Below, piece after piece: positions 13,227 to 50,341 of a stretch of DNA of 51,130 nt; position 1 is the stretch's first letter; the number at the start of each line of letters is the position of its first letter. This stretch comes from Pseudomonadota bacterium (GTDB lineage: Bacteria > Pseudomonadota > Gammaproteobacteria > Burkholderiales > Rhodocyclaceae), in the NCBI GenBank assembly GCA_021849505.1, contig JAJZSW010000010.1:1-51130 (forward strand), written 5' to 3'. The translations under genes and the position numbers were made by a program. Under the pieces are notes generated by a model that was given only the letters and a program-made list of their open reading frames with translations, did no database searches and had not been told where the DNA came from.

Positions 13227-13302
13227 AAAAAACGGCGTCGATCGCAAACTTGTGGTTTGCGATCAGACGCCGTTGTCTGGTGACCGAGCCGCCATCGGCT
13301 CG
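13227..13302 (-). promoter_or_regulatory. ANTAR-type antitermination leader of the nrt-nir-nas operon
   Basis: On the minus strand, in transcript order, there are three structures. First, stem P1 (13285-13302) pairs CGAGCC with GGCTCG around a six-base loop GATGGC. Second, five bases on, stem P2 (13264-13279) pairs CAGAC with GTCTG around the loop AACGGC, with A at loop position 1 and G at 4, the known ANTAR-target rule. Third, an intrinsic terminator (13231-13274) has outer arms AACGGCGTC/GACGCCGTT and inner arms GATCGCAAAC/GTTTGCGATC, then six U (13227-13232). P2 and the terminator share AACGGCGTC, so they exclude each other. NasT, encoded just upstream, is the expected binder. P1 has G rather than A at loop position 1. 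Confidence 0.82.
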
Positions 13303-13319
13303 ATACTTGACGATCAATT

Positions 13320-13336
13320 AGCAACTGCTGTGCCAG
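13320..13336 (-). promoter_or_regulatory. Sigma-54 (RpoN) promoter of the nitrate operon
   Basis: The minus strand reads CTGGCACAGCAGTTGCT, matching the TGGCAC-N5-TTGC consensus with GG and GC exactly 12 bp apart. The predicted transcription start is near 13310, a few bases before stem-loop P1, so the leader would begin almost directly with the ANTAR target. This fits nitrogen control of nitrate use. Confidence 0.82.
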
Positions 13337-14227: not shown

Positions 14228-14261
14228 TTGGCCTATGACAAATAACCTGCAAATAGTTGCG

Positions 14262-14274
14262 CCGCGTTACTGGC
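14262..14274. repeat. 13-bp direct repeat, left copy
   Basis: CCGCGTTACTGGC occurs here and again at 22932-22944, so the two copies bracket the tRNA-like pair and the prophage remnant. Confidence 0.6.
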
Positions 14275-14292
14275 TTCGGTATGGTTGCGCTC

Positions 14293-14364
14293 GGCAAGGT
14301 GTCCGCCGATAGGTAAAGGCTAGGCTTCGGCTGAAATATGCGGGTTCGAGTCCCGCCCCTTGCC
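14293..14364 (+). ncRNA. tRNA-like sequence A, anticodon arm replaced by a UUCG hairpin
   Basis: 72 nt. Acceptor stem GGCAAGG/CCTTGCC pairs fully over 7 bp. The D-arm is GCC, loop GATAGGTAAA, GGC. The T-arm is GCGGG, loop TTCGAGT, CCCGC, with the canonical TTCGA. Between the D- and T-arms are only 19 nt, where about 23 are normal. They can form a 3-bp stem GGC/GCT capped by the stable tetraloop TTCG, so there is no seven-base anticodon loop. No CCA is encoded. It is not a standard tRNA. It could be a decayed tRNA, but its match with the neighbouring copy argues for a conserved shape. Strand is inferred from the tRNA polarity. Confidence 0.6.
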
Positions 14365-14368
14365 GCTC

Positions 14369-14391
14369 ATACTCGCCAGGCTGGCGGGTAT
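14369..14391 (+). other. Hairpin between the two tRNA-like sequences
   Basis: ATACTCGCC and GGCGGGTAT pair over 9 bp (one T-G) around AGGCT. The bases after it (TCTGTT) are a poor U-run, so terminator function is uncertain; a processing or spacer stem is equally possible. Confidence 0.45.
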
Positions 14392-14401
14392 TCTGTTACA
14401 G

Positions 14402-14472
14402 GGCCAGCGTTCGCCGATTGGTAAAGGCCAGGCGCAAGCCGGAGGATGCAGGTTCGATTCCTGCCGCTGGCC
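14402..14472 (+). ncRNA. tRNA-like sequence B, anticodon arm replaced by a GCAA hairpin
   Basis: 71 nt, 37 nt after copy A. The acceptor stem is 8 bp (GGCCAGCG/CGCTGGCC). The D-arm is GCC, loop GATTGGTAAA, GGC. The T-arm is GCAGG, loop TTCGATT, CCTGC. The 19-nt middle forms GGC/GCC with a GCAA tetraloop and has no anticodon loop. Acceptor and T-stem bases differ from copy A yet keep pairing, and one stable tetraloop replaces another, as expected under structural selection. The last base, 14472, is also the last base of the truncated phage gp27 gene on the other strand, so the prophage junction lies at its 3' end. Confidence 0.6.
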
Positions 14473-14831
14473 TACTTCCCTTGCTTCAAGCGCCTGAGGA
14501 TCGATGCGGGCGGTTCATCGACATGCACCAGGCGCGCATGGCCGTTCCGGCGGTCGAGCACGATAACCAGCGTGGTTTCGCCCGCCAGCTCGGCGGCGAT
14601 CTTCGGATCAATCCCGGCGGCTTCGATCTGGGCGCGCACCCGCGCAATCGAGATATTCCGCTCCATCTGCTGCCCGTAGCGATGCAGGCCGCTTTTCGAG
14701 ACGCGGTAGCCACGCCGATGCAATTCCTTGGCGATCTGGTCATAGCCGCCGAAGCCGTTGCCGATCAGGCGCTTGTCGACTTCGTCCCTGACTTTCGGCG
14801 GCAAGCGATCAATGGTGCTTACGCGTGGCAT
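14472..14831 (-). CDS. Mu gp27-like protein (DUF3486), C-terminally truncated
   Basis: 119 residues from ATG 14829-14831, with GGAGAG upstream. The N-terminus MPRVSTIDRLPPKVRDEVDK, then GFGGYDQIAKELHRRGYRVS and KSGLHRYGQ, is the helix-turn-helix part of the Mu gp27 family, thought to be a small terminase-like packaging protein. Family members are usually about 180 residues. Here the frame ends at a TAG formed right at the junction with tRNA-like sequence B, so the C-terminal third is gone. It lies 34 nt after tail protein I, an order not found in Mu. Confidence 0.75.
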   Translation of the reverse strand: MPRVSTIDRLPPKVRDEVDKRLIGNGFGGYDQIAKELHRRGYRVSKSGLHRYGQQMERNISIARVRAQIEAAGIDPKIAAELAGETTLVIVLDRRNGHARLVHVDEPPASILRRLKQGK

Positions 14832-14865
14832 ATATTTCTACTCTCCAAGGGCGGGGCGCTCAGGC

Positions 14866-15477
14866 TCATATCTGTTCCACCGACATGCCGGCCGAAACAA
14901 CCTGCGAGCCAACGATCGCGCGCCCGTAGCAGATGGGCACCGGGTTGCCCTGCGCCGCCGTGTTCACCGGACCATCGAACGCGTAGGAAGGCTTGTTCTC
15001 GGGCCGCTCGACGCTGGTTCCGGAAGTGTTCGGCGTGCCGGCGAGCATCTGCGCGACGCCGCCCATCACCAGCGACATGCCGATGTTGGCGGCGAAATAA
15101 CCAGCGAGCCGCATGCCGCCAGCTTTCCATGCCGCATCAAACGCAAGGCTGGCGCCGTTCGTCATTAATCCGAAGCCGATCAACGCGGCACCCAGCAGGA
15201 TCTGTCCGACGCCCTTCTTCCCAGCGCCGCACATCACCGGCACGACACGGATCGACTCGCGCTCGCCGCAGGGGTCAAGCATCGTGTCCATGTCACGCGG
15301 CGCGCCGCCGGCGATGACGCGATAGCCGCCCGCGCCCTCGCTGGCCAGGACCGCGTCGCGGAAGCCGGGCAGCTGCATCAGCAGTGCGCGCATCGCCTCA
15401 GCTGGAGAGGCGACATCGAGACGGAAGACCCGCCCGAAGCGTGCGCCGAGGTGACCATAGAGGCGGATGGTTTTCAT
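14866..15477 (-). CDS. Phage tail assembly protein (lambda gpI-like)
   Basis: 203 residues from ATG 15475-15477. The start MKTIRLYGHLGARFGRVFRL, then SPAEAMRALLMQLPGF and the C-terminus IVGSQVVSAGMSVEQI, are typical of the lambda tail I family. Members have a ubiquitin-like N-terminus and a glycine-rich hydrophobic middle, here GQILLGAALIGFGLM. The ends look complete, so this gene is not truncated. In lambdoid tails the host-specificity gene J follows; here it is missing and gp27 follows instead, which shows rearrangement. Confidence 0.78.
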   Translation of the reverse strand: MKTIRLYGHLGARFGRVFRLDVASPAEAMRALLMQLPGFRDAVLASEGAGGYRVIAGGAPRDMDTMLDPCGERESIRVVPVMCGAGKKGVGQILLGAALIGFGLMTNGASLAFDAAWKAGGMRLAGYFAANIGMSLVMGGVAQMLAGTPNTSGTSVERPENKPSYAFDGPVNTAAQGNPVPICYGRAIVGSQVVSAGMSVEQI

Positions 15478-15521
15478 GTCAGCATGCCTTTCCTTTCCCG
15501 GAATCGGCGCTCGTGGCGCTC

Positions 15522-15701
15522 TTACTTCAGGCGCTCGCGGCGCTCTCGGGCATAGGCGTCCCCGGCCATGCTGCTGCCCTGCTCCGTGTAGCGCGGCAGC
15601 GCCGGGGGCTTCCGGCCATGGGTCGGCTGACATTGCAACGCTATGGCCGGCTCTCGCGTTGCGTCATATACCAGGACAGAGGAGCTGCTCCTATTCTTCA
15701 C
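15522..15701 (-). CDS. Small phage protein, unknown
   Basis: 59 residues from a GTG that overlaps the protease I stop (GTGA). The C-terminus YTEQGSSMAGDAYARERRERLK is charged and helical, and looks like real protein. It fills an otherwise empty gap of 220 bp and uses the same coupling seen at gemA. No family was recognised. The main doubts are its length and the lack of an independent ribosome-binding site. Confidence 0.45.
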   Translation of the reverse strand: MKNRSSSSVLVYDATREPAIALQCQPTHGRKPPALPRYTEQGSSMAGDAYARERRERLK

Positions 15702-16429
15702 TCGAAGACCCCCGGAAAAATGTGCTTCAGCTTGGCGGCATCCTCGGCAGTAACGCCGTCAAGACTGGCCTTGGGCTTGGCCGGCTTGCCGGCGCGGCAG
15801 GCGGCAGGTTCCTTGTCGATGCCGTATTCCGCCTTGAGGCGGGCCACCTCGGCGGGTGGCGTATGCGGATGGAAGACCCCGACCATGCCGAATGCCCGGT
15901 TGAAGCTCTCGATGGCGCGGTCGGTATCGCGGTTGCCGGTGGTGAACCGTGCGGATGCAGCGGCCAGATCGGCGAGGCCATCCAGGGCGGGCTGATTGGT
16001 CAGACCGACACTGACCAGGCTTTGCACTTCGCCGGATCGCGTGTCGAACGTGAAGACCGGCGAAATGAATCGGTATTCCTTGGCGGAAATCATCGCGGCG
16101 GCTTTCTCTGTCCAGTGTGCATCGATGGCATAGAGGCCGTCTCCTTCGCGCCATTCGGCCCGCTTGAACCAGCCGGCAGCGGGGGCAATGCCGCCGTTTT
16201 TCGTGGTCTGCAAGCTCTGGTGCTCGTAATCGATCAGAACATCATCCTTGCGCGCGGCCAGGCTGGCAATGATGCCATGCGCGATCCGCGTGTTCATCAG
16301 CCAGGCGGTGACATTGACGGGCCGGCCGCTGCCATCCGCCGAGCGGAACATGCCTGCCGGCAGGATGCGGAATTCCCTGAATCCAGACGGCCCCAGCGGT
16401 TGCGACAGCGCGGCGACAACGGTATTCAT
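15698..16429 (-). CDS. Mu I-like prohead protease/scaffold protein
   Basis: 243 residues from ATG 16427-16429, with AAAGG upstream. It has the Mu I family signature: FREFRILPAGMFRSADG near residue 18, VLIDYEHQSLQTTKNGG, PAAGWFKRAEW, EYRFISPVFTFD and LTNQPALDGL. It would process the phage head and help scaffold it. The Mu protein is about 360 residues, so the scaffold-like C-terminal part is shorter here. The major capsid gene, normally just downstream, is missing, so there is no head to process. Confidence 0.82.
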   Translation of the reverse strand: MNTVVAALSQPLGPSGFREFRILPAGMFRSADGSGRPVNVTAWLMNTRIAHGIIASLAARKDDVLIDYEHQSLQTTKNGGIAPAAGWFKRAEWREGDGLYAIDAHWTEKAAAMISAKEYRFISPVFTFDTRSGEVQSLVSVGLTNQPALDGLADLAAASARFTTGNRDTDRAIESFNRAFGMVGVFHPHTPPAEVARLKAEYGIDKEPAACRAGKPAKPKASLDGVTAEDAAKLKHIFPGVFE

Positions 16430-16440
16430 GATCGAACCTT

Positions 16441-17103
16441 TCAGCCCTGCCGCTGCGGCTTGTAGGGCACCTGATAACCCAGGGCGGCGAGCTTGGCGGC
16501 CAGATCGGCGCGGCGGGCGTGCAGCTCGTTGAGGCGGGTTTGCAGCTTGACGATCAGGGCGCGGCGCTCTGCTAGGCCGCAGCCGATATCACCCTCGCCG
16601 ATCTTGCCGTAACCCATGTCCGCCGGGCCGATGCCGTCCATGACCCGCTCAATCCGCGCGGCGATGGCCTCCCCGAAGTACAGGAACAGCGGCGCGTCGA
16701 AGACATGCGGCGTCTTGTTCGCTTTCAGCAGGTTGGTGTACTCATAGTTGCCATATTCGCCGGCGATGATCGATTCGATATCGGCGTAGGTCATGGGCTT
16801 GCCGATGACTGCTGCCGGGATGGTCTGCCCGCCCTGCTTGTGCAGAATGAAATCGCAGATTGCGGCGCGCAGGGTGTTTTCAAAACGCTGGGCATTGGCC
16901 TTGAGAATTTCGACCACGGCGCGCTTCATTTCGTCGGGTGGCAGCCGGAGGCCCAGTTGCCGATCCAGTTCGGCGGCGGTGCTGTCGATTTCCGCCTCGG
17001 TGGCGTCGTATTCGGCGCGCAGGGTGTCTATCGTCGCGCGCACCTTGGCATGGGCGGCGGCGGCTTCGGTAAAGCTGTCCGTGGGGGCGGGCTTGGTGGC
17101 CAT
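16441..17103 (-). CDS. Unknown phage protein
   Basis: 220 residues from ATG 17101-17103, with AAAGGAC upstream. I do not recognise the family. Residues 8-55 form a probable coiled coil rich in Ala and Glu (HAKVRATIDTLRAEYDATEA and on). Another helical stretch, RALIVKLQTRLNELHARRAD, is near the C-terminus. The middle has aromatic-rich YGNYEYTNLL and APLFLYFGEAI. It lies 11 nt before protease I and is probably co-transcribed with it. Confidence 0.65.
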   Translation of the reverse strand: MATKPAPTDSFTEAAAAHAKVRATIDTLRAEYDATEAEIDSTAAELDRQLGLRLPPDEMKRAVVEILKANAQRFENTLRAAICDFILHKQGGQTIPAAVIGKPMTYADIESIIAGEYGNYEYTNLLKANKTPHVFDAPLFLYFGEAIAARIERVMDGIGPADMGYGKIGEGDIGCGLAERRALIVKLQTRLNELHARRADLAAKLAALGYQVPYKPQRQG

Positions 17104-17131
17104 GGGGTGTCCTTTCGTTCTACTGGATTGG

Positions 17132-17455
17132 CTAGGCGCGGCCGGCCGGAATGTAGATATTCACATTGCCATGCGCGCGGATCAGCTTCTGGGCGGCCTC
17201 ATGGCCGATCAGATCGATAATCACCTTTTCGACCTCGCGCTTTTGGCCAGGGGAAGGCACGGGCAAACGAAAGCCCCCGCAAGCCTTTACCAGGGCGTCG
17301 GTTGCTTGCCGTCCGATCAAGGTATCAAGCTCACCCAATGAAACGGTCTTGACGTGGGTATGGAAAAGACCGACGCCTGCGTTGCAGGCAATTGCTTCTC
17401 TCTCGGCGTCCTCGATAAAGGCCGGTTTCGGCCGGGCCGGTTGCGGTGCGTTCAT
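17132..17455 (-). CDS. Mor-like protein without DNA-binding domain
   Basis: 107 residues from ATG 17453-17455, with AAAAGGAC upstream. It contains two copies of the Mor N-terminal pattern: IGRQATDALVKACGGFRLPV and IGHEAAQKLIRAHGNVNIYI, each helix-(G)G-strand-Pro. In Mor/C activators this segment makes the dimer. The protein ends right after the second copy, so the helix-turn-helix of true Mor is absent. It starts 13 nt after the Mor gene. I infer a partner or antagonist of Mor; no such role is established. Confidence 0.6.
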   Translation of the reverse strand: MNAPQPARPKPAFIEDAEREAIACNAGVGLFHTHVKTVSLGELDTLIGRQATDALVKACGGFRLPVPSPGQKREVEKVIIDLIGHEAAQKLIRAHGNVNIYIPAGRA

Positions 17456-17468
17456 GGTTGTCCTTTTG

Positions 17469-17870
17469 TCAGATGGCACGGTTGAGGATGATTTCGATGG
17501 CGCGGTAGGTCATTTCGAAGTGGCGTGCCAGGGTGTTGATGTCTTCGCCATCATCGAAGGCGCGGCGGATGGCACGGGCGCGAATTTCGGTGCGCAGGGT
17601 GTGGCAGCGCGGAATACTGAGCATTTCGCCGCCGAATTCATTGCAGATCGCCAGGGCCGCATCCCGTCCGGCCGCTGCGGCGATGCGCTCGAAAGCAGCC
17701 TTGCCGCTGGTGTTGTTGTTCTCCCCCTTGGGGATGGAAATCTCCATGCCGCGAAAGGCATTGACGACGGCGATAGCAGCCGGCAGGCCGGCAACGCGCT
17801 CGATATCGCGCACCAGGGCGGGCAGTCTGGCAACGTCTTCCGGGGTGAGTTCTTCGGCATGAATATCCAT
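17469..17870 (-). CDS. Mor-type transcription activator
   Basis: 133 residues. The N-terminal half repeats the motif twice: AGLPAAIAVVNAFRGMEISI and AGRDAALAICNEFGGEMLSI. The C-terminal half has the Mor helix-turn-helix (RARAIRRAFDDGEDINTLAR, then HFEMTYRAIEIIL). In Mu, Mor turns on middle transcription after the early operon. It has a 59-bp gap from the upstream terminator, so it may have its own promoter there. Confidence 0.82.
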   Translation of the reverse strand: MDIHAEELTPEDVARLPALVRDIERVAGLPAAIAVVNAFRGMEISIPKGENNNTSGKAAFERIAAAAGRDAALAICNEFGGEMLSIPRCHTLRTEIRARAIRRAFDDGEDINTLARHFEMTYRAIEIILNRAI

Positions 17871-17930
17871 GCCTGCATCATCCCGACAGGGGAAGAATTT
17901 CGGCAGGGGGAAAGGCTTCAGATGGGCAAC

Positions 17931-17963
17931 AAAAACCCCGCCGGGATCGCTCCGGGCGGGGTT
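17931..17963 (-). terminator. Intrinsic terminator before the mor gene
   Basis: On the minus strand AACCCCGCC pairs with GGCGGGGTT around a 12-base loop, then TTTTTG. It would end the transcript coming from MuA-MuB-GemA and the 80-residue ORF, which fits the end of a Mu early operon. Confidence 0.8.
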
Positions 17964-17982
17964 GTAGCGGGATGGCAGGCGG

Positions 17983-18225
17983 CTATTCCGATGGCTTGTC
18001 GATCAGTTCGCGGCACTGGTGCGCGGAATCCAGGAGCTGACCGCCGATCACGTTCAAAAGCTGTCCAAGGCCAAACAGACACACATCGTCAATCTTGGTT
18101 TTATCGGCGCACTCCATCAAGCCACCCAGGGCACAGATGCCCAAGCCGGTATCGCTGACGGTATCCAATACCCGCTTGCTCTGTTCCAGCGGGTGATAGG
18201 CGTGGCGGGTGTTGTTTTCAGCCAT
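17983..18225 (-). CDS. Small phage protein, unknown
   Basis: 80 residues from ATG 18223-18225, chosen because AGGAGG lies 6 nt upstream; an in-frame ATG at 18300 would add 25 residues without a good site. The C-terminal half is helical, FGLGQLLNVIGGQLLDSAHQ, and the middle is rich in Gly and Cys (GLGICALGGLMECADKT). The family is unknown. It lies directly before the terminator and is the last gene of the early block. Confidence 0.6.
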   Translation of the reverse strand: MAENNTRHAYHPLEQSKRVLDTVSDTGLGICALGGLMECADKTKIDDVCLFGLGQLLNVIGGQLLDSAHQCRELIDKPSE

Positions 18226-18449
18226 GATGGCCTCCTGTATGACGTTTTGAAGTTCGCCCCTTTTGAGGGCGGCTGGGTGATAATTGAATTGAGCGGGCAT
18301 CGACTCCCGGATTTGATTCCGGTTGCGTTTAGGACGTTAAGGTCGGGGACGCTCGCCACGAATAGCGATTCCCGGCCCGGAACCCGCGTTACCATAGCGT
18401 TACTTTTTTCCAGTGATATGCAGGTAGCCCTGAGCATCTTGTAACGCGC
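18226..18449. other. 224-bp gap in the prophage, no supported gene
   Basis: It holds short near-repeats CCGCGTTAC and AGCGTTAC around 18383-18402. An open frame on the minus strand overlaps the 80-residue gene but has no ribosome-binding site and no protein-like features. A promoter here is possible but I could not resolve one. Confidence 0.4.
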
Positions 18450-18890
18450 CTAAGGGGCTGTATTGCGGTTTTCATTGAGTTGGGCGGCATGGGGTTTGAA
18501 GTTGCCCAGGGCCGCGATAGCCTTGGCGGCAAGTTCGCGGGAGAGGAAGCGAGGATTCGCGACGTGGAATTTGTTTTCCAGCCAGCGGTTCAAGCCCTCC
18601 TCGTCTGCCCTGCCCTTCCAGGCGCTCCACATGGCCGCGATCTTCTTGCGCTGCTGATAGGTGGCATGCGTGCCAAAGCGCCCAGCCTCAAGGCGGCGTT
18701 CCTTGTTGGCTGTCGATTCGAACCCCAGGCGCGCGAATTCGGCCATGACGGCGGTGAACCGGGCTTCGTCCAATTCCGTTGAGCTGCGCACGCCGGCAAC
18801 GCGCAGCAGTAGGGCGCGATAGTCGGTATCGGCCATGCCGAGCTGCTTTTGGGCAACCTTGATAAGAGCGATCTTGGCCTTGTCGATCAC
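18450..18890 (-). CDS. GemA/gp16-family phage regulator
   Basis: 146 residues from the GTG at 18888-18890 that overlaps the MuB stop (GTGA). It matches the DUF1018/GemA pattern: KIALIKVAQKQLGMADTDYR at the start, GVRSSTELDEARFTAVMAEF, ATYQQRKKIAAMWSAW, and PRFLSRELAAKAIAAL at the end. GemA proteins follow MuB in Mu-like phages and modulate host gene expression and DNA topology. Position and sequence agree. A longer extension upstream only shadows MuB. Confidence 0.82.
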   Translation of the reverse strand: MIDKAKIALIKVAQKQLGMADTDYRALLLRVAGVRSSTELDEARFTAVMAEFARLGFESTANKERRLEAGRFGTHATYQQRKKIAAMWSAWKGRADEEGLNRWLENKFHVANPRFLSRELAAKAIAALGNFKPHAAQLNENRNTAP

Positions 18891-19954
18891 AGCTTCGCTC
18901 CCGATGCCATCATGGTGTCGTAATCGATCACGCCAAAGTCCCTGCGGGCTTTCGTGTATATCCTGACCAGGCGGCGCAAGGCTCCCGGCTTTTTGGCAAT
19001 TTCTCGGCTTAGAACCATTGCCTTGACGCCTTGCACTTCCCATGCCCTAGCAATAGCGTCTACATCTTCATCTTTGAACATGTTTTCATCAGTTGCGATA
19101 GCCGGTTCCAGGCGACTAAATAGCTGGGTACGGTCGACCCTGCCGTAGTATTTGCGGTAGACCTCTCCATTGCCGATTAAGACAACCCCGAAACACACCG
19201 CATCAACAAAACTCCGCAATCCATTGAGAATTGATTCACCTTGTTTCAGATTGGCATCGGCTAAATGCTGACCTTCGTCGACGATCAGCAAGCCCCCCGC
19301 TCCGTCCGTGGCCTCGCGGATGCTTTTGCTCATTGTCCAGGGGTCGCGGTTGTCCCAATCGCGCCTAACCACTTGCCCTCCAATCATGCTCAGAATGCTT
19401 TTATGGCTCAGGCAGTATTCATCAAGCGTGATAAGCCATACCGGGGCACGCACGCCTTCAGAAAGTCGCACCTTGCGCAAGTAATCCTCAGCGGCGCGCG
19501 TTTTTCCGATTCCTGACGGTCTATCGAACAATCCAAATTGACACGCATCGCGACACTGGCGAGCGAAATCGTAAAAATCGCGAGTAATGCCCGTTTCCAC
19601 CGTGCGCACGGCTCCACGGGCGCGGCGTTTCAGTTCAAATTCAACCAAGCATGCTTCCAGTGAATCTGCGCGCTTTTCCAGATTGGTTTTATCCATTTCG
19701 GTTGCTCCCCATAGGGATCGCCGAATGCCGCTCAGTGTTTCCGGGGAGGCGCAAAATATATCCAGCCAATCCCGTTCGATATTCGTTTCCCGCTGGATGG
19801 CGGCATAAGACAACGCCCCCTCCCCGCTCATGGCATCAATCAGGCGCGCGGTCAAGGCCTGCCAGCGTTCGCGGGAAATGGCGGCATCTTCGGACCACGC
19901 AGTAACGCCCCGTGGTTCGATTATCTTGCTCAAGGGTTCAATCATGGTGTCCAT
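18887..19954 (-). CDS. MuB-like transposition ATPase
   Basis: 355 residues. An AAA+ ATPase core runs from about residue 140. Walker A is RPSGIGKTRAAE, where the first Gly of the usual GxxxxGKT is Arg. Walker B is GLLIVDEGQHLAD. Later LIGNGEVYRKYYGRVDRTQL matches the sensor region of transposition helpers. MuB binds target DNA and activates MuA. It begins 12 nt after MuA. The Arg in the P-loop is unusual but GKT is intact, so ATP binding is plausible. Confidence 0.85.
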   Translation of the reverse strand: MDTMIEPLSKIIEPRGVTAWSEDAAISRERWQALTARLIDAMSGEGALSYAAIQRETNIERDWLDIFCASPETLSGIRRSLWGATEMDKTNLEKRADSLEACLVEFELKRRARGAVRTVETGITRDFYDFARQCRDACQFGLFDRPSGIGKTRAAEDYLRKVRLSEGVRAPVWLITLDEYCLSHKSILSMIGGQVVRRDWDNRDPWTMSKSIREATDGAGGLLIVDEGQHLADANLKQGESILNGLRSFVDAVCFGVVLIGNGEVYRKYYGRVDRTQLFSRLEPAIATDENMFKDEDVDAIARAWEVQGVKAMVLSREIAKKPGALRRLVRIYTKARRDFGVIDYDTMMASGAKL

Positions 19955-19966
19955 TACCTCACTGAA

Positions 19967-22000
19967 TCAACCTACCGCACGTTTTGCGGCCTGTAGGCGC
20001 TTTAGCTCAGCCAGTTTGTCCCAATCGATTGAATCGTCTTCTGCTTCTTCGGGTTTTTCGAGTCGACGAATGACACGCTTGGTTTCTGTATTCAGCAGCT
20101 CGCCGGGTGTCCCGGTCTGCTGGAATAACGGCTGCTTTTGCGCTTCGGGTTTGGCCGGTTGCGGCGGTTCGATGATGCCCACGTCAGCAGACGGCAGCAG
20201 GGCTGGGGCTTGCGTCCTGACTGCCTTGAGTTCTGTTTTGACGCTGGCGATAGTTTTGCTTTTGTCTTTTTTCCACGCGGCAGCGGCATCGCCCGCTCCG
20301 ATGGCGGGTATATCGTCAATCGGCGCGCAATCGCAGATGTACCGCTCCCCATCATGCACAGCTATGTGGGCGGTCGGGTCTTCGGCGTGATACCAGACGG
20401 CATAAGGGCGTTGCCGCGCATTCAGGGGCAGCCTGGCAAATGCTTCGTTGTAATAGCGCCGCTCGCTGTATCCGTTTACAGTCAGATGGAATACGCCTTC
20501 GCTGTCGGGTTTCAGTGTCTTGACGGCCATCAGCAACAGGCGAAGGTGCGCCGGGTCGGGGCGGTGCTCTTCGATATCAACGGCCGGCAAAAGCTCCCCA
20601 TAGACGGCATCCGGGGTGCGTCCATGCATGCCGTTCCCTCGGTGTGTATGTTCGCTGTTGTACCAGCGGATAAATTCCGCCAGCCTGCGGCCTATCAATT
20701 CGATGGGGATCGCTTTTCGCTTGTCGAATTCTTCGGGTTTGGATACAGGGTCTTTTCCGCAGTATCCGCCGGCAAACTCCGGGGATTTGCAAACCCGTTG
20801 ATGCAGCAGACGATGCCATGATTCGATATTCTTGTCGCGGGCCTTTCCTGGTTCTGACCATTTCATTTCGACACCCATCATTGTCGCCACGCCCATTGGT
20901 TCGCCAGGGTTTATAGTGAAGCGGTAGCGTGTTTTTTGTCTGCCAGTAAAGGGTTTATTTGCATATTCCCTGCCGCTGTCTATCTTGCCCTTTTTGGGTT
21001 TAAGCCCGCATGCGACGACGGCATCCCGGAATGAGATCATGACCAGCGCGCCATTCGGATTCTTATAGCCCTTGCACGATAGAACCTTGCGTGACCGGCA
21101 TTCCCGCCACGTCACGATAAAAGGTCTGCCAGTCGTACCATCGGGCCAGATCGCCACGACATCCATCCGACAGCCATCGGATTCCCACATCGTATGTAGC
21201 GGCTCGGTAGACCAATCGCGCCGAGAAGTCGGCAAGCTCGCTTCAAGTGCTTTCGGGCCTTCCCTGCCCAGTATGGTCAATGATGCCGGCTCATTATCCA
21301 GCTTGCGCTTTACGGTTTTTGTCGACGGAATTTTCCATCCCAGGCTTTTACCGTGCCGGCGTGCTTCGTCAGTAATGAATTTGACGTTCGGCTCCGACTG
21401 ACACATGAACTTATCCAGAATCCAGTTATAGGCTTCCTCGGTAAATTCGGCCTCCTGCCTATTGCCGAAATAACGCGGTGCAAGCAGGGGAAGCCAGTGT
21501 CCACGTGGATGTCCGTCGACGTCATTGCGGTAGCGCCATAGAGTTGCCTTGGAAATCGCGTGCTTTTGAGTGACGGCCGCCTCTGCCATGCCGATAGAAA
21601 CCCCGGCTTCGCGTGCATCGTTGAAATCTGTCATCGCTTCCAAGGCAGCTTTCGCCTTGTCTTTGCTAGGCGTATCGAGCTTTTCGTACCAGGCCCACCA
21701 TTCGCTGTAACGCGGATCGGGTTCGGCATTCGCTGCCGGGGCCGGCTGCACGAAGGGGACAAGCTGTGTGGATTCAGATCGGCATGGCACAAGCGCCCCG
21801 CCCTGCTCTGCCCGGTATTTCTTCTGGGCTTCCTCGGGCAGGCTGGACAGCAGTACCAGGAACGGGGCGCGGCGGTCGGTTTCGTCGCGTATGGCGTCAT
21901 ACATGCCGGCCTCTAAGCGCCGCTGCAAGGTTCGCGCACTAATGCCCAATAGCGGTGCGGCGGCAGCAACAGGAATTCGGATGGCGTCAGCTTCGGTCAT
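19967..22000 (-). CDS. MuA-type DDE transposase
   Basis: 677 residues from ATG 21998-22000, which overlaps the previous gene by 14 nt and has GAGGTGG upstream. An N-terminal HTH (AAPLLGISARTLQRRLEAG) is followed by a second DNA-binding region. The catalytic core has Asp in WESDGCRMDVVAIWPDG, Asp in GKIDSGREYANKPF and Glu in KNIESWHRLLHQ. The C-terminal part, rich in Pro and Lys, fits the MuB-interacting tail. It would join prophage ends to target DNA. The open frame is intact, so the protein may still be active on any surviving ends. Confidence 0.88.
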   Translation of the reverse strand: MTEADAIRIPVAAAAPLLGISARTLQRRLEAGMYDAIRDETDRRAPFLVLLSSLPEEAQKKYRAEQGGALVPCRSESTQLVPFVQPAPAANAEPDPRYSEWWAWYEKLDTPSKDKAKAALEAMTDFNDAREAGVSIGMAEAAVTQKHAISKATLWRYRNDVDGHPRGHWLPLLAPRYFGNRQEAEFTEEAYNWILDKFMCQSEPNVKFITDEARRHGKSLGWKIPSTKTVKRKLDNEPASLTILGREGPKALEASLPTSRRDWSTEPLHTMWESDGCRMDVVAIWPDGTTGRPFIVTWRECRSRKVLSCKGYKNPNGALVMISFRDAVVACGLKPKKGKIDSGREYANKPFTGRQKTRYRFTINPGEPMGVATMMGVEMKWSEPGKARDKNIESWHRLLHQRVCKSPEFAGGYCGKDPVSKPEEFDKRKAIPIELIGRRLAEFIRWYNSEHTHRGNGMHGRTPDAVYGELLPAVDIEEHRPDPAHLRLLLMAVKTLKPDSEGVFHLTVNGYSERRYYNEAFARLPLNARQRPYAVWYHAEDPTAHIAVHDGERYICDCAPIDDIPAIGAGDAAAAWKKDKSKTIASVKTELKAVRTQAPALLPSADVGIIEPPQPAKPEAQKQPLFQQTGTPGELLNTETKRVIRRLEKPEEAEDDSIDWDKLAELKRLQAAKRAVG

Positions 22001-22202
22001 TGACCACCTCGCCGGCCTTGATGCCCAGTGCAACGGCAACCCTATGGCCCACGCCAATCCGGCCCGAATTCTTGCCGTTCAATACTTGGCTGACCGTGCC
22101 AATCGAAAACCCATGCTGACGTGCCCAGGAGTTTTGCGAGATACCTTTGCGCACCCAATCGTCCCGGATGGCTTGCGGTGTCTTGGTGGATTGTGGTTTC
22201 AT
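21987..22202 (-). CDS. Small HTH protein, BcepMu gp16 / Ner-like
   Basis: 71 residues from ATG 22200-22202, with GGAGAA upstream. One helix-turn-helix: DWVRKGISQNSWARQHGFSI then GTVSQVLNGKNSGRIG. This matches the short phage-associated BcepMu gp16 family and plays the role of Ner or Cro in Mu-like phages. It is the first gene of the early operon and faces the repressor across a 75-bp operator region. It probably represses early or repressor transcription. Confidence 0.8.
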   Translation of the reverse strand: MKPQSTKTPQAIRDDWVRKGISQNSWARQHGFSIGTVSQVLNGKNSGRIGVGHRVAVALGIKAGEVVNDRS

Positions 22203-22224
22203 GTTTTCTCCTTAACTTCAAATA

Positions 22225-22264
22225 CACCCAAACGTGTGCAAACGTTATCACACACAAATGTGTG
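22225..22264. promoter_or_regulatory. Repressor operators between ner-like gene and cI-like gene
   Basis: Two related dyads: CACCCAAACGTGTG (22225-22238) and CACACAAATGTGTG (22251-22264). The second is perfect with a 2-base centre and the first has one altered base per arm. The centres are 26 bp apart. They fill the gap between divergent genes, where a lambda-like switch is expected. Confidence 0.72.
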
Positions 22265-22277
22265 CAGTCAACGATAA

Positions 22278-22778
22278 ATGTCTTCAGAAGTAGGAAACCG
22301 AATCAGAGAAGAGCGCAAGAAACTTGGGCTATCTCAGGCTTTATTTGCCGAAAAGGCAGGTATCCACAGGAATACACAGGCCAATTACGAGGCGGGTTCC
22401 AGGAACCCTGATATCGAGTACATCGTCACCATAATGAAGATTGGTGTCGACATTGGCTATGTTCTTGAGGGATACGACTGGTTTGAGAGTGACAAGGCAG
22501 AAACTCCCCTTGTTGGCCTAGGAATCAGCCTTGGCAGGATGCTAGACAAGTTTGATGTTCGCCCCGGAAAAGCGGGCTTGATGAAGCTAGGGGATATTGA
22601 TTTCAACCTCTTGGCTGAGATATTGGAAGGCGTCGACCTCGCTCTTCAACAGGACGGGCTGGCCATGTCAGCCTTGAAGAAAGCCAAGGCCACGGCCCTT
22701 CTCTACCGCAGCTTCAGTGCTACTGGAAAGGTCGACGCCAATGTTCTTGCCGAGACAATCAGGCTCGCTGCTGCTTGA
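22278..22778 (+). CDS. Phage repressor, XRE/HTH_3 family
   Basis: 166 residues. The HTH at the start (VGNRIREERKKLGLSQALFA, then EKAGIHRNTQANYEAG) is XRE-type, followed by an alpha-helical C-terminal region ending VLAETIRLAAA. No LexA-like Ser-Lys protease motif is visible, so induction by RecA cleavage is unlikely. It is the only prophage gene on the plus strand. It lies beside two dyad operators and probably keeps the early operon silent. The base composition is clearly lower in GC than the host genes. The start has no strong ribosome-binding site. Confidence 0.82.
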   Translation: MSSEVGNRIREERKKLGLSQALFAEKAGIHRNTQANYEAGSRNPDIEYIVTIMKIGVDIGYVLEGYDWFESDKAETPLVGLGISLGRMLDKFDVRPGKAGLMKLGDIDFNLLAEILEGVDLALQQDGLAMSALKKAKATALLYRSFSATGKVDANVLAETIRLAAA

Positions 22779-22782
22779 TGCC

Positions 22783-22926
22783 TGTCGCGACATGCCGCAG
22801 CGCGATAACTAGGCTTGCGAGCGAACTTTGCTTGTAACACATTGACTCAATGTAATTTATTTCGTGTCGCGTCATCAGGAACCATGTCGCGACTTAACTT
22901 TTGCAATGTCGCGACATTTCGCGACA
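22783..22926. repeat. Tandem TGTCGCGA end repeats, probable transposase-binding phage end
   Basis: Five related decamers: TGTCGCGACA (22783), TGTCGCGTCA (22865), TGTCGCGACT (22885), TGTCGCGACA (22907) and TTTCGCGACA (22917). Read inward from 22926 the minus strand starts TGTCGCGAAATGTCGCGACA, the TGTCG-type end with repeated sites used by Mu/Tn7-like transposases. The rest of 22779-23074 holds no gene that I can support. Confidence 0.68.
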
Positions 22927-22931
22927 CGCTA

Positions 22932-22944
22932 CCGCGTTACTGGC
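22932..22944. repeat. 13-bp direct repeat, right copy
   Basis: CCGCGTTACTGGC, identical to 14262-14274, begins 5 bp beyond the presumed phage end. Confidence 0.6.
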
Positions 22945-23074
22945 AATAATGCCCAATCCTGTTTCTCGCTTAACCATGAGGGTCTGCACGGTCGCTCAGG
23001 GGCGAGTGCGGCCGTTGCCGCGTATTTCAGGTCATGTGTCCTGACCGGGGTTTTGAGTCCGAATCTTTCAAACC

Positions 23075-41356: not shown

Positions 41357-44300
41357 CTACTGCCAGTTCGCGGCGATAACCGGTGCCAATGCGGTCTGGT
41401 AGGCCGGCGGCAAAGTGGTCTCCCCCGCAGCAGGCGGCGAAAAGGCCGCCATCGCCTGCACCAGATTCTCCACCTGAGTGTCGAGCAGGGTGTGACCGTC
41501 CGCCGTCTTGAACTGCTCGACATGGTACTGATTGCCCAAGTACCAGTTGTTGATGGTGAGCTTGTCCGAGGTGCCGATGATGCTCGACTCCAGATTGTTG
41601 CCGACACGACGGAACCAGATCTGGTCGCTGCCGATTCCCGACAGGAAGCTGGCGACATCGGTGTTGCCGGATGTCGCGTCGTTCTCCGTCACCGTGTCGG
41701 ATCCATAGCCGCGTCCGAACATGTAGGTGTCGTTGCCCAGCCCGCCGGTGAGCGTGTCGTTGCCGCTGCCGCCGTCCAGCGTATCGTTGCCCGCATTGCC
41801 GGCGAGTGTGTTGTTTGCACTGTTACCGATAAGCACGTTGTCGAGCGCGTTGCCGGTACCATTGATGATCGAGGAGCCAGTCAAGGTCAGGTTCTCGACG
41901 TTGTTACCCAGCGTATAGGTGATGCTCGACCGAACCAGATCGATGCCTTCGTTGGAATTTTCCGTCACAACGTCGCCTGTGGCATTGACCACATAGATAT
42001 CGTTCCCTGTGCCACCTCGCATCGTATCGTTGCCACTGCCGCCATCCAGCGTATCGTTGCCCGCATTGCCGGTGAGCGTGTTGTTCGCGCTGTTGCCGAT
42101 AAGCACGTTGTCGAACGCGTTGCCGGTACCACTGGTGGCCGAGGTACCGGTCAGGGTTAGATTTTCGACGTTGTTACCCAGCGTGTAGGTAACGCTCGAC
42201 TGAACCAGATCAGTACCCTCGTCCGCCAATTCCGTCACGACATCGCCAACGTTGTCCACAATGTAAGTGTCGTTGCCGGCACCGCCGACCAATGTATCTG
42301 CACCGCTGCCGCCGCTCAGGACGTTAGCCGCAATATTGCCGATAATCGTGTTGGCGAGACTGTTGCCGGTGCCATTCACCGCCGCCGAGCCTGTGAGCGT
42401 CAAGTGCTCGATATTGCTGCCAAGCGTCCATGTCACCGAAGACAAGACAGTATCGATGCCCTGATTGGCACTTTCTGTAACGATATCTCCCGTATTGTCC
42501 ACGACATAAGTATCGTTGCCAGCCCCGCCGCGGAGGGTATCCGTTCCGCTGCCACCGTCGAGGAAGTCGTTTCCATCCAGCCCATTGAGAGTATCGTTTC
42601 CGCCAAGGCCGTATAGACGGTTATCCCCGGAGTCACCCGTGAGAGTCTCCGCGGCATCGGTCCCATATTTGCTCCGGGACCGCAATACCAGTTCATCACG
42701 CAGCCAAACCGTGCCGTTATCGAACCGTACCTGATCGACTTCACAGCGATCTTGATCCGTAAAGAAGAAACCGGCCAGCGTTATGACATCTGTCGTACCT
42801 CGAATCCTCAGTTCGAGATCATCCGCACCTTCATAAGGCCGTACCACATCGATCATCTCGGGTGTGGTGCCGGCGCGAATTTGCAGCGTATCGATCCACT
42901 GGACGCCTGCCGTATTTTCGGCGGCAAAGATGTGGCCGGCACCATCTCCCGCTCCCCAAACGAAGGTGTCCATCCCTTGTCCGCCGGTCATATATGTTGC
43001 TCCAGAACCGGCATGCAGCACATCGTCCCCGTTATCGCCGAACAAGAAGGAGGTACCGCTGCCGCCGATGAGTTGGTCCGCGCCATCTCCACCATATATC
43101 CAATCCACACCGACTCCGGCAGTGATCGTATCGTCGCCCTCCGCTCCCCAAGCCGCGTCATTGCCGCCGAGCAACGAAATGATATCGGCACCGGCACTGC
43201 CCAGGACCACATCATCTCCTTCGGTTACCGCATTACCCTGCGCCACACGAATGCCGATCTGGACATTGTCCCAATACACGCCGTCGGCAAAAGAAATACT
43301 TTCCAGGCCGGTAAGGAAGTGATACTTCACTGTCACGGTGCCGCTTCCCGCCGGACCGCGAATCACGAGATCATTGCCGGAACGCTCCAGTTGAACATCC
43401 TTCGCGGCCAGGTCGGCAAAGACGGCCTTTGTGTAGCCGCTGTTGCAGAAGACCGTGTCATCGCCGAACATCCCCGAGAAGCGGCAGGTTGCGCTATGCG
43501 AAACGAGCGTATCGTTTCCCGCCCCTCCATCGAGAACATCTTTGCCGGCAAACGATTCGAGCCGGTCGTTGCCTTCTCCGCCTTCAAGGAAATCAGTGGC
43601 GCCGTACAACTGTGTTCCGCCACGAACACCGTCGTAGAGCACATCGTCACCGCCGCCGCCCAGGATGGTATTCGACGCACTATTGCCGGTCAGCGTATCG
43701 TCCGCCCCAGTTCCTTCGATATTGCTCGCTCCCAGTGCATCGCCGAGTGTCATGGCCTCGACGTTGTCATACCAAGACAGGCTGAAAGTGGTACCCGAGA
43801 ATCCACTGCCGATCACCACCGTGTCGACACCCTCGCCGGCCAGTTCGGCAATACTATCGCCATCGCCGACGATGTAAGTATCGTTGCCGGCACCTCCGGC
43901 CAACCGGTTTGCAGCCGCGTTTTGGGAACCGTCCAATGTATTGTTGAGCGAATTACCCGTCCCGCCGACCGTCGCCGAACCCGTCAGGACCAACGCCTCG
44001 ATGTCGCGGCCGAGCACGTAATCGAAGCTCGCCTTTACCGTGTCGAAGCCGCCATTCAGCCCGCCTGTCTCGATCACAGTATCGTCTGGACTATCCACGA
44101 TATAGGTATCCGACCCTTTACCGCCGATCAGCGTATCGGCACCCGTTCCCCCATCAAGAATGAACTGATAGCTGGCACCGTTATCTTTGATGGCGATGGT
44201 ATTGTCCAGCGCATTGCCGATGATGCTCGATTCGCCGGTATATATGCTTCTTTCCTCATAGACGACATTTTCCACGTTGGCGGGCAGGGCATATGCATTA

Positions 44301-47300
44301 TGGTTGTAACTGGTCGCCAATACCGTATCGTTGCCTTCCCCCTGCAATTCGACGACTTGCGCCCAATTGGAGGATTGCGTGGTAACCACGTAGATATCGT
44401 CTCCACGGCCGCCGATCAATTGATCGTTATAGCCCCCGCCGCCGTCCAGCCGGTTGTTTCCGCTGTTGCCCCGGATCACATTGTCACTACTGTTGCCGGT
44501 TCCATCGATATTCACCATCCCCGTCAAAGTAAGATTCTCGACATTGCCGGGGAGGGTATAGCTGACGCTGCTCGACACCGTATCGTTCCCCTGGCCCGGT
44601 TGTTCGACGATCTGGTCCTGCGGGTGGTCAACCGTAAATGCATCGTTTCCTGCCGTGCCGGTCTGCGTGTTGGCGATGCCGGCCTGGTTGACGATTCGCG
44701 CGGCAATATCGGCTTCGTTCCATACCAGGCCGTCTTCGAAAACCACGCGTTCGATGCGCCTGTCCTGCGTAGCGTCGAAATGATCCTCGATGCGCAATTG
44801 CTCGCCGCTCCCATCGAGCACGAGAACCAAATCGTCGGCCCCAGTGCCGTCGGAGGTGCGCACCAGCGTAACCGCCTCCGCACCGATGCCCGCATCGAGG
44901 CGGATTTCGTCCGTACCGCCGGCGACCGAGCCATTTCCTTCGAGCAGCCGGTCGGCCCCCTGCCCGCGCCCGAACCGATAGACGTCGTCTCCACCGCCAC
45001 CCTCCAGCCGGTCGTTTCCGGCACCGCCGATCAGCGTATCGTTGCCTGCGGCAGGCGTCGCCCCATTCCATAGCGCGTCGCCGCTGAGGAAATCGTCCCC
45101 TGCCCCGCCTTCCAGCCAGTCGTTGCCCGATTCCCCGTACAACTGATCGTTATCGCCGCCGCCATAGAGAGTATCGTCACCCTTGTCGCCGAAAATGTAA
45201 TCGTTGCCGCCCCCGCCATCGATCGTATCGCCGCTGTCATAGCCGGTCAGCGTCTGGGCTTTGTCGTTGCCGGCAATCATCATCCGCTTAACATCGGCAA
45301 TGCTCCACACCGTGCCGTCCGCGAATTCGATGCGATCCACCTTGCTGACATCGCCATAACTGGCGAAATAACCGGAAAGGCGCACCCTGTCGCCGCCGCC
45401 GCCCAGGGTCAACCACAGTTCGTCGGTGCCGTTGTAGGCAATCCTGTTCCGATACAGCGTCACGCTCTCCGGCGCTATGCCGTTGCCGAAAACCAGGCGA
45501 TCGACCTTGCCGGGCGTGGAATCCCAGTTGGAAACGACATCCTGGCCGTCTCCGATGTCAAAAAAGTAGGTGTCGCTGCCATTACCGCCGATCAGCGTAT
45601 CGTCGCCCTTGCCGCCGACAAGCATATCGTCGCCTGCGCCGCCATCAAGACGATCGACGCCTCCTCCCCCTTCCAGCCTATCGTTGCCTCCTTCGCCGTA
45701 CAGGTAATCGTGGTCATCTCCCCCCATGAGCCAGTCGTTTCCACCACGGCCGTAAAGATAGTCGTTGCCCGCGAGCGCATCGACAATGTCATCTTCGGCA
45801 GAAAGCGTCAGATTGTCGTCGAACGGCGTGGCTGCCACCGGCGTGACTCGCGCCTCGAGCATTGCGCGGTCCCAGTACGTGCCGTTGGCGAAACGCAGTC
45901 CATCAATGCTGCTGTTCTCAACGAAATGATCGAGTACCGTCAAGGTATCGCCGGTATCCTTCACGCGCACCATCAAATCGTCGCCGACATGCCATACGCT
46001 GAGATCCTGTTCGGCGATCCCCTCGGTCAGTTCGATGACATCCGTTCCCGCTCCGGAGTCATAGGCATTTACCGTATCGCGTCCGTAACCGCGCCCGAAG
46101 ACAAAAGTGTCGTCACCCGTCCAGCCTTCCAGATAATCGTCTCCGCTGCCGCCATCAAGACGGTCGGAGCCGGCAAGGCCTTTCAGATAATCGTCGCCAT
46201 CGCCGCCGAAGATCGTATCGTTCCCATCGTTGCCGTAAATGGCGTCCGCCCCCGCGCCGCCATCGATGACATCGTCGGCGGCCGTCCCTTGAATGTTCGG
46301 ATCGTTGTCCGAAGTGCCGGCAATGTGAATGCCCCGCTCCAGCAGCGCCGAGAAACTCAGCGCCGGATTGCCATCGAACTCATAGCGGTCGATCGAGGGA
46401 TTCGCCATCGGATCGGCCTTGTCGAAAACCTCCAGTACGATCTCTCCCGGCTGTGCACCGCCGATCGACAGCACCAGCGCCCCGCCCCGCAGCGACAGGG
46501 CAATGTCCCCGGGCCGGATACCAATACCGAACTTCAGCACGTTCGGTGCCGGATTGCCGAGCGGGTCGGTCTTGGCGCTGGTGTCGCGGATACTGTCGTT
46601 GCCATCTCCCTCCGCGTAATGGTAGGTGTTGTTGCCGCCCGAAGCCGCGAGCGTATCGTTGCCCGCGCCGCCGTAGAACATCGCCCCACCGCCCGTCGCG
46701 CTCAGGTCGTCGGCAACCGCCCCGCCCACCAGCACCGCGCCGGGATTGCTTGCGGCCTGAATGACGGAGTCCGCAAGATAGCGGTTTGCCAGTTGCTGAT
46801 AGGTGAGTGCCTCTCCCCCAATGTCATAGTTTTTCACGGTACCCGACAAGCCATTCACCACGATCAAGCCTTCCGCCCCCCCGGCCCACGTCAGCAGCAA
46901 ATCATTCCCCGCCCCGTGCAGCGTCAGGTCGCTCGTACTGGCACCACCCAGTATTGCCGTGTTGTTGCCTTCCGCATCCTCGATGGTTTCTCCGTTGGCG
47001 CCGAGCGGCGCTTCGCCCGCGCCGATGACATAGGTATCGTCGCCGCTGCCTCCGTTCAAGTAATCCGCGTCCAGCCCGCCGACCAGTAGGTCGTTGCCGC
47101 CTCCCCCGTAAAGCCTATCCTGTCCCTCGCCGCCATCGAGATAATCATCGCCATGGAACTCGACCGCCAGCGCATCGTCGTCGCCGTACAGAAAGTCGTC
47201 GCCCTTGCCGCCGTATAAAGTGTCGCACTCACCCTGCCCGAACAGCGAGTCATTTCCTTTGCCACCCTCGAGATAATCCTTGCCGTGATGCACACCGGCC

Positions 47301-50300: not shown

Positions 50301-50341
50301 GCAAGTTCAGACTGTTTTGAATAATCAGTGATCACGCTCAT
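41357..50341 (-). CDS. Giant RTX protein with N-terminal lipase domain
   Basis: 2994 residues from ATG 50339-50341, with GGGGAC upstream. Residues 1-about 400 are an alpha/beta hydrolase (lipase class 3-like). Ser173 is in [14 protein letters not shown], Asp234 in [12 protein letters not shown] and His262 in VGNHSIVTL, a full triad. From about 500 there are many GGxGxDxLx nonapeptides forming calcium-binding beta rolls, interrupted by five FxxGxxW modules (for example [27 protein letters not shown]) of the haemolysin-related type. Near the C-terminus are 80-90-residue near-identical repeats. No signal peptide: it would leave by the adjacent type I system and fold outside with calcium. It is very acidic. 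Confidence 0.92.
41750..42560 (-). repeat. Near-identical 240-270-bp tandem repeats in the RTX gene
   Basis: Units encode [15 protein letters not shown]-like starts, [13 protein letters not shown] middles and [12 protein letters not shown] ends. The last two units are 90 residues apart and nearly identical in DNA. Boundaries are approximate. Confidence 0.75.
49574..49680 (-). repeat. 107-bp exact duplicate, copy inside the RTX lipase domain
   Basis: Identical to 51024-51130. It covers the catalytic Asp region, [18 protein letters not shown], through IENQLP. Confidence 0.9.

What the first reader, a model, noticed from the sequence alone, without database searches (positions are those of the whole stretch)
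14293..14472. Tandem tRNA-like RNAs with the anticodon arm replaced by tetraloop hairpins
Two 71-72-nt sequences, 37 nt apart, keep acceptor stem, D-arm (GATxGGTAAA loop) and T-arm (TTCGAxT) but have only 19 nt where the anticodon arm belongs. Those fold as GGC-TTCG-GCT and GGC-GCAA-GCC. Stems differ between copies with pairing preserved, and both caps are stable tetraloops, which suggests selection for a tRNA shape without decoding. Seen directly: the pairings. Inference: a functional RNA family, for example a decoy or processing substrate, or a specialised phage or host RNA.
Basis: partly seen in the sequence, partly recalled or inferred. Interest (0 to 1): 0.72.

Follow-up and report, generated by a model that had tools for sequence, protein, structure and literature searches.

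The report
tRNA-shaped phage RNAs without anticodons
Mu-like phages and small Mu-like elements carry tRNA-shaped RNA sequences whose decoding arm is replaced by a short hairpin; in complete phages they lie on the opposite strand right behind a head-protein gene that ends in a predicted RNA-cutting domain, so they may be RNA antidotes to that domain.

Summary
Confirmed: window 14293-14364 and 14402-14472 (+) are two anticodon-less tRNA-like sequences at the right end of a compact Mu-like element. They belong to a real RNA family: on 41 members 94.3% of cells are paired, 16 of 17 pairs show double changes, covariation 0.60 against 0.18 in shuffles. In 160 MuF loci fetched by protein alone the RNA model hits 31, every hit on the strand opposite to MuF and just downstream of it. 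Thirty belong to one 47-member cluster of C-terminal domains homologous to that of phage Mu gp30; the 31st, L225, has that domain in a shifted frame; none lies behind short MuF or other domain clusters. Mu, D108 and MuM16-1, whose domain lacks the His/Lys motif, have no gap and no RNA; Pasteurella phage Pmp9 has both. Best reading: an immunity RNA that mimics the tRNA substrate of a virion-borne RNase; the window pair would be orphan immunity (no MuF found in its genome). Family and linkage are shown; expression, RNase activity, binding and inhibition are inferred. Ten paper searches listed no description.

The parts
14293..14364 (+). anticodon-less tRNA-like RNA, copy 1 (TTCG cap)
   Evidence: R1 92.1 bits, R2 77.3 bits; R1 and R2 include this copy, so it matches by construction; independent support is the relatives
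14402..14472 (+). anticodon-less tRNA-like RNA, copy 2 (GCAA cap); its last base overlaps the stop codon of the ORF at 14472-14831
   Evidence: R1 91.4 bits, R2 77.5 bits, same caveat; 96% identical relative in G003
14280..14285 (+). weak -10-like box TATGGT before copy 1 (4 of 6 to TATAAT)
   Evidence: read from the sequence; weak
14389..14394 (+). weak -10-like box TATTCT before copy 2 (4 of 6 to TATAAT)
   Evidence: read from the sequence; weak
14263..14272 (+). CGCGTTACTG, repeated exactly at 22933-22942 (+), near both ends of the Mu-like element; role unknown
   Evidence: only two exact copies in the window
14472..14831 (-). TerS-like ORF of the Mu-like element
   Evidence: phrog_426, E 3e-17
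14866..15633 (-). tail assembly protein-like ORF
   Evidence: phrog_32, E 8e-60
15698..16429 (-). head maturation protease-like ORF
   Evidence: phrog_328, E 5e-56
16441..17103 (-). ORF of 220 aa, no family
   Evidence: no PHROG; only a sub-cut-off Pfam match
17132..17870 (-). two Mor-like late-activator ORFs (17132-17479, 17469-17870)
   Evidence: phrog_836, E 1.7e-11 and 3.9e-25
18887..19954 (-). DNA transposition protein (MuB-like)
   Evidence: phrog_296, E 8.9e-36
19967..22057 (-). transposase (MuA-like)
   Evidence: phrog_310, E 1.5e-83

Best explanation
The RNAs are immunity (antitoxin) RNAs. In complete Mu-like phages an antisense promoter between MuF and gpG makes a tRNA-shaped RNA that keeps elbow and acceptor but has no anticodon loop. 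It binds the RNase-like C-terminal domain (MuF_C) of the MuF head protein and blocks it as an uncleavable substrate mimic, protecting the lysogen from its own and from incoming related virions. The compact Mu-like element of this window has no MuF and carries two such RNAs in tandem as orphan immunity. Shown: RNA family, strand, fixed position, linkage to the MuF_C domain, absence where the domain is missing or its motif degenerate, -10-like boxes in most MuF-linked copies. Inferred: transcription, RNase activity on tRNA, binding, inhibition, the role in this window.
For: Covariation on 41 members. R2: 34 hits in 31 of 160 MuF loci, all opposite in strand to MuF, 29 of 34 starting -6 to +17 nt from the MuF stop, the rest being tandem copies (3), the frame-shifted L225 and L201. 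30 of 47 MuF_C-cluster loci against 1 of 103 others (L225, whose MuF_C is in another frame); Fisher 2.3e-18, 2.8e-14 without eight discovery contigs. Independent contrasts: 11 pairs, 7.7 same way, 0 opposite, median p 0.008. Motif intact: 29 of 37 tRNA-like, against 1 of 10 without it, p 1.4e-4. Mu, D108 and MuM16-1 lack motif, gap and RNA; Pmp9 has all three. The L078 domain is homologous to Mu gp30's C-terminus (E 3e-13), which PMC5512222 calls an inactive PBECR (MuF-C) domain with probably active orthologues (passages). -10-like boxes: 23 of 32 against a shuffle mean of 3.5, maximum 9.
Against: No transcript, no activity data. Foldseek found no significant PDB match for the domain model; Pfam MuF_C scores were below the curated cut-off in all four proteins that matched. 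17 of 47 MuF_C-cluster loci have no tRNA-like; some have another antisense fold instead. The motif expression was written after seeing the loci, misses L297 and L298, L195 has the RNA without it, and only 3 independent contrasts exist for it. Weak R2 hits are not separable from tRNAs by score. In the genome sample only 2 of 7 loci scored MuF_C-positive had R2 hits. -10-like boxes of the window copies are weak.
Confidence: 0.6

Rival explanations
1. Cis-antisense regulator: the antisense transcript controls MuF or gpG expression, and the tRNA shape only serves processing or stability.
For: Antisense position with -10-like boxes between the two genes.
Against: Does not explain why the RNA follows one C-terminal domain type and is missing behind short or motif-less MuF, nor copies without MuF in compact elements.
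Confidence: 0.17
2. The RNA is a positive partner of MuF_C: a bound cofactor, chaperone or packaged RNA of the virion rather than an inhibitor.
For: Same linkage to the domain; MuF proteins are virion components (PMC5512222 passages).
Against: Copies persist in elements without a detected MuF; such a partner would not obviously come with an antisense promoter.
Confidence: 0.12
3. Decoy against host or rival tRNA-cutting defence nucleases, unrelated to MuF_C.
For: tRNA shape without anticodon; occurrence in mobile elements.
Against: Strict position behind one MuF domain type.
Confidence: 0.06
4. Decayed or unusual ordinary tRNA genes.
For: T- and D-arm sequence resembles tRNAs; two members pass Rfam's tRNA cut-off.
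Against: Double changes in all four helices including the hairpin, constant antisense position, no anticodon.
Confidence: 0.02

Closest known systems
MuF polymorphic toxins with immunity proteins (PMC5576092 and PMC11699363, passages)
   Same: Variable C-terminal domain on the MuF head protein of temperate phages; candidate immunity factor encoded next to it; orphan (poly)immunity is a known theme.
   Different: Here the candidate immunity factor is a structured RNA on the opposite strand; the published factors are proteins. Toxicity of this domain is untested.
MuF-C / PBECR domain of phage Mu gp30 and orthologues (PMC5512222, passages)
   Same: Homologous domain; Mu's copy was called inactive, as the missing motif here also suggests.
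   Different: No RNA partner in the passages read.
Type III toxin-antitoxin systems such as ToxIN (recalled, from no call)
   Same: Would also be an RNA neutralising an RNase.
   Different: Those RNAs are, as recalled, repeats upstream of and co-oriented with the toxin gene, with pseudoknot folds; here a tRNA fold, antisense and downstream.
tRNA and tRNA-like structures (tmRNA domain, viral TLS; recalled)
   Same: Acceptor, D-arm, T-arm and elbow motifs.
   Different: No anticodon arm, extra base between T-stem and acceptor, longer 8-9 linker.

Membership tests
tRNA | anticodon stem-loop with 7-nt loop | tested here: not met
   3-bp hairpin with 4-nt cap in both window copies; ARAGORN none
tRNA | acceptor, D-arm, T-arm with conserved loop motifs | tested here: met
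tRNA | aminoacylation / CCA end | not testable with these tools
   CCA is not encoded; addition unknown
MuF toxin with cognate immunity factor | MuF N-terminal domain with a C-terminal effector-like domain | tested here: met
   in relatives, not in the window: PF04233 above cut-off in 13 of 15 adjacent proteins scanned, the others being partial; none in the window or its genome
MuF toxin with cognate immunity factor | effector active and neutralised by the neighbour | not testable with these tools
   inference only
BECR/PBECR nuclease | significant profile or fold match | tested here: inconclusive
   MuF_C/PBECR3 below cut-off for the tRNA-linked domain; Foldseek none; tblastn to Mu gp30 E 3e-13; other clusters match PBECR2 above cut-off
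type III toxin-antitoxin | RNA repeats upstream of and co-oriented with the toxin gene (recalled) | tested here: not met
   RNA is antisense and downstream
phage satellite (for the window element) | lacks own capsid/portal/large terminase and depends on a helper | tested here: inconclusive
   ten ORFs scanned show none of these; helper not sought, defective prophage not excluded

The most novel reading that the evidence does not exclude
RNA polyimmunity in Mu-like phages: each RNase-type domain that can sit at the end of MuF comes with its own structured antidote RNA on the opposite strand (a tRNA mimic for MuF_C, other folds for PBECR3-, PBECR2- and variant MuF_C domains), swapped and lost together with its domain; mobile elements such as the one in this window collect orphan copies that protect against other phages' virion nucleases.
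Probability: 0.5. Interest if true: 0.93.

Novelty: new variant of a known kind. Interest (0 to 1): 0.85.

Why it matters
It gives a candidate partner to a widespread phage head-protein domain whose function and immunity were open, and suggests that immunity to a virion-delivered toxin can be an RNA. The shape of the RNA predicts the target (tRNA), and the pattern of joint loss fits the earlier remark that Mu's own domain is inactive. One protein domain and one RNA of about 75 nt in a laboratory strain would test it directly.

Tried and rejected
Rejected: ordinary or decayed tRNA; a known RNA family for the window copies. Led nowhere: relatives of the TerS-like protein in viral contigs (none confirmed); plasmid hit H21, an ordinary tRNA array; Foldseek against PDB. 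Xanthomonas phage PBR31 has a similar T-arm and outer stem with a different inside; left open.

Dropped rows and limits. The wide pattern matched 62 contigs. By eye I kept 26 as anticodon-less, set aside six more without an ARAGORN call (L056, L061, L065, L072, L107, L110) and took the other 30 as ordinary tRNAs. Of the 26, 20 have a MuF_C frame antisense within 0-19 nt (near-identical groups: L071/L073/L086/L104 and L062/L084/L100), L068 has only the MuF N-domain, L103 is at a contig end, L064, L066, L080 and L093 have no antisense MuF. Ten truncated loci were left out of counts, leaving 150: 120 long, 30 short. Eight loci are contigs of the discovery set. The MuF_C profile was built from MuF proteins found beside the RNA. 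gpG was misplaced or not found in some loci; for five short MuF loci I used the next-ORF gaps. Fisher values ignore relatedness. The sequences behind R2 and the pair counts were aligned by R1, which leans towards its structure. Genome sample: 38 loci, R2 hits 2 (L297, L325), both antisense at the 3' end of MuF_C-positive MuF; 7 loci scored MuF_C-positive, though L302's own C-terminus is of another type; L301 and L304 have another fold with a T-loop; L298 has a motif-like stretch and no R2 hit.

Full report
OBSERVATION. Two tRNA-like sequences lie at 14293-14364 and 14402-14472 (+), 37 nt apart. Each keeps acceptor, D-arm and T-arm and replaces the anticodon arm by a 3-bp hairpin capped by TTCG or GCAA. 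ARAGORN and Rfam (gathering) find nothing in the window. Folding of single copies is unremarkable, so the case rests on relatives.

SURROUNDINGS. To the left are nitrate-assimilation-like genes (recognised by eye). To the right, on the minus strand, lies a compact Mu-like element: transposase, transposition protein, two Mor-like activators, a protease-like, a tail-assembly-like and a TerS-like ORF among ten scanned; portal, capsid and large terminase were not among them. The RNAs sit at its right end, on the strand opposite to its genes. Neither the window nor its genome gave a MuF hit.

RELATIVES. A same-genus genome, G003, has a similar element with a 96% relative of copy 2 and an 81% relative of copy 1, 3.6 kb apart. 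A covariance model of these four (R1) found further strong relatives in 297 family genomes, among them a tandem pair in G183 and, in L030, a 131-nt member with about 60 extra nt in the hairpin; ordinary tRNAs named by ARAGORN reached about 32 bits with R1. A scan of named genomes gave eight records: Rugosibacter, Rhodocyclaceae bacterium ppb04, Rhodocyclus purpureus DSM 168, Zoogloea ramigera, Azonexus, Extensimonas, Accumulibacter and Sideroxydans; four of the eight loci carry a MuF_C frame beside the RNA, four do not. Hairpin caps include TTCG, GCAA, GAAA, CTTG and AATT on stems from 3 bp to about 10 bp (by eye).

STRUCTURE. On 41 members, 94.3% of 635 cells are standard pairs, 16 of 17 pairs change on both sides, covariation score 0.599 against 0.179 in shuffles (0 of 500 as high); slid structures reach at most 0.115. 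The alignment was fitted to the structure. G-U cells outnumber A-C cells 33 to 16, which favours this strand.

POSITION. A wide pattern in IMG/VR pointed to the gap between MuF and gpG of Mu-like phages. To test this without looking at RNA I fetched 160 loci by the MuF N-domain. R2 gives 34 hits in 31 of them in 1.16 Mb, all on the strand opposite to MuF. 29 start between -6 and +17 nt from the MuF stop; the others are second and third copies in L197 and L178, L201 (-41) and L225 (+172, MuF frame-shifted). gpG was found downstream of the RNA in 30 of 31 loci.

LINKAGE TO A DOMAIN. Of 150 complete loci, 30 have short MuF and 120 a C-terminal extension. Clustering the extensions, tRNA-likes occur in 30 of 47 of one cluster, 0 of 35, 0 of 14, 0 of 9, 0 of 3 and 0 of 2 of the next five, 1 of 10 singletons (L225) and 0 of 30 short MuF. 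L225 has this same domain in a shifted frame. The first cluster is the MuF_C kind: my profile scores Mu gp30 at 94 bits, tblastn of the L078 domain finds Mu gp30 at E 3e-13, and Pfam MuF_C matches four of the adjacent proteins, each below its cut-off. Fisher p is 2.3e-18, or 2.8e-14 without the eight discovery contigs. On a tree of the N-domain, membership in this cluster changes at least 25 times; in 11 independent contrasts the RNA goes the same way in 7.7 and opposite in 0 (median p 0.008); extension against slot: 8 contrasts, 5.6 same, 0.0 opposite on average, median p 0.031.

INTACT MOTIF. In that cluster 29 of 37 loci with a His/Lys motif have a tRNA-like and 35 of 37 a tRNA-like or a gap of at least 60 nt; of 10 without it, 1 and 3 (p 1.4e-4 and 6e-5). 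The two exceptions with the motif (L203, L264) are loci where gpG was not found. Dereplicated and without discovery contigs, 32 loci: 18 of 26 with the motif have a tRNA-like, 0 of 6 without. Named phages agree: in Mu and D108 the genes overlap by 4 nt, in MuM16-1 the gap is 9 nt, all three without the motif and without an R2 hit; Pasteurella phage Pmp9 has the motif and an antisense tRNA-like (44.4 bits, GCAA cap) in a 123-nt gap. PMC5512222 had called Mu's domain an inactive PBECR and its orthologues likely active (passages). Cautions: the motif expression was written after reading the loci; L195 has the RNA without the motif; L297 and L298 carry variants it misses; only 3 independent contrasts bear on it. 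By eye, PBECR2- and PBECR3-like members with almost no gap (L136, L176, L186, L191; L193, L256, L269) lack a lysine that the gapped ones keep.

EXPRESSION SIGNALS. 23 of 32 MuF-linked RNAs have a -10-like hexamer (at least 5 of 6) within 28 nt upstream; 500 shuffles of the upstream letters give a mean of 3.5 and a maximum of 9. The boxes of the window copies are weak.

OTHER RNAs IN THE SLOT. Behind the PBECR3-like cluster (L127: 28.6 bits, cut-off 30) lies another conserved antisense sequence, ACACGGTG...CTCCCNGCCGTA, with a hairpin that varies; MuF_C variants with GxKxxRH and PBECR2 domains (above cut-off in L123, L144 and L260) have others. Their structures were not tested by covariation.

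MECHANISM. MuF toxins with cognate immunity proteins are established (PMC11699363 passages); PMC5576092 defines a C-terminal MuF domain of proteobacterial temperate phages without known function (passages). I propose that the RNA is the immunity factor of MuF_C, a tRNA mimic lacking the part to be cut, and that the window pair is orphan immunity in a satellite-like or defective element. RNase activity, the tRNA target and binding are inferences; the fold search gave no support. Odds: 0.6 for the mechanism, above 0.95 for the RNA family and its linkage.

KNOWN OR NEW. Ten full-text searches of open-licence PMC listed no description (listings only, two of them capped lists of about ten thousand matches; PMC12226406 seen as a listing). 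In mechanism it would resemble type III toxin-antitoxin systems (recalled), in place the MuF immunity proteins, and it is neither; I file it as a new variant of a known kind.

Noticed in passing
window ~14260-22950; L015; L288: A group of compact Mu-like elements of about 9 kb (transposition genes, Mor-like, protease-like, one or two different tail or TerS genes, tRNA-likes at or near the right end) without capsid or portal genes noticed; perhaps satellites. L288 was read by eye only.
   Followed up: partly
A11 (16 loci, e.g. L127:5241-5344): A second conserved antisense sequence family (ACACGGTG...CTCCCNGCCGTA with a varying hairpin) behind PBECR3-like MuF domains.
   Followed up: partly
L178:5347-5653 (-): Three tandem tRNA-likes behind one MuF gene.
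   Followed up: no
L030:1501-1631 (-): A 131-nt member with about 60 extra nt in the hairpin that replaces the anticodon arm, no MuF in the locus.
   Followed up: no
L014:7754-7822 (-): A degenerate-looking third tRNA-like that seems to lack the 5' half of the T-arm (by eye).
   Followed up: no
L026 / L283 (Zoogloea ramigera contig): MuF and gpG frames are interrupted by repeats that look like type I-E CRISPR repeats (by eye); misassembly not excluded.
   Followed up: no
L113:3916-4045 (Xanthomonas phage PBR31): An intergenic T-arm and 13-bp outer stem resembling the family, with a different inside, co-oriented with the genes.
   Followed up: partly
window 13264-13334 (-): Sub-threshold Rfam match to narK RNA (36.7 bits, cut-off 43.2) upstream of a nitrate-transport-like gene (as L023:472-542).
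   Followed up: no
window 41357-50341 (-): An open frame of 2994 aa, not examined.
   Followed up: no
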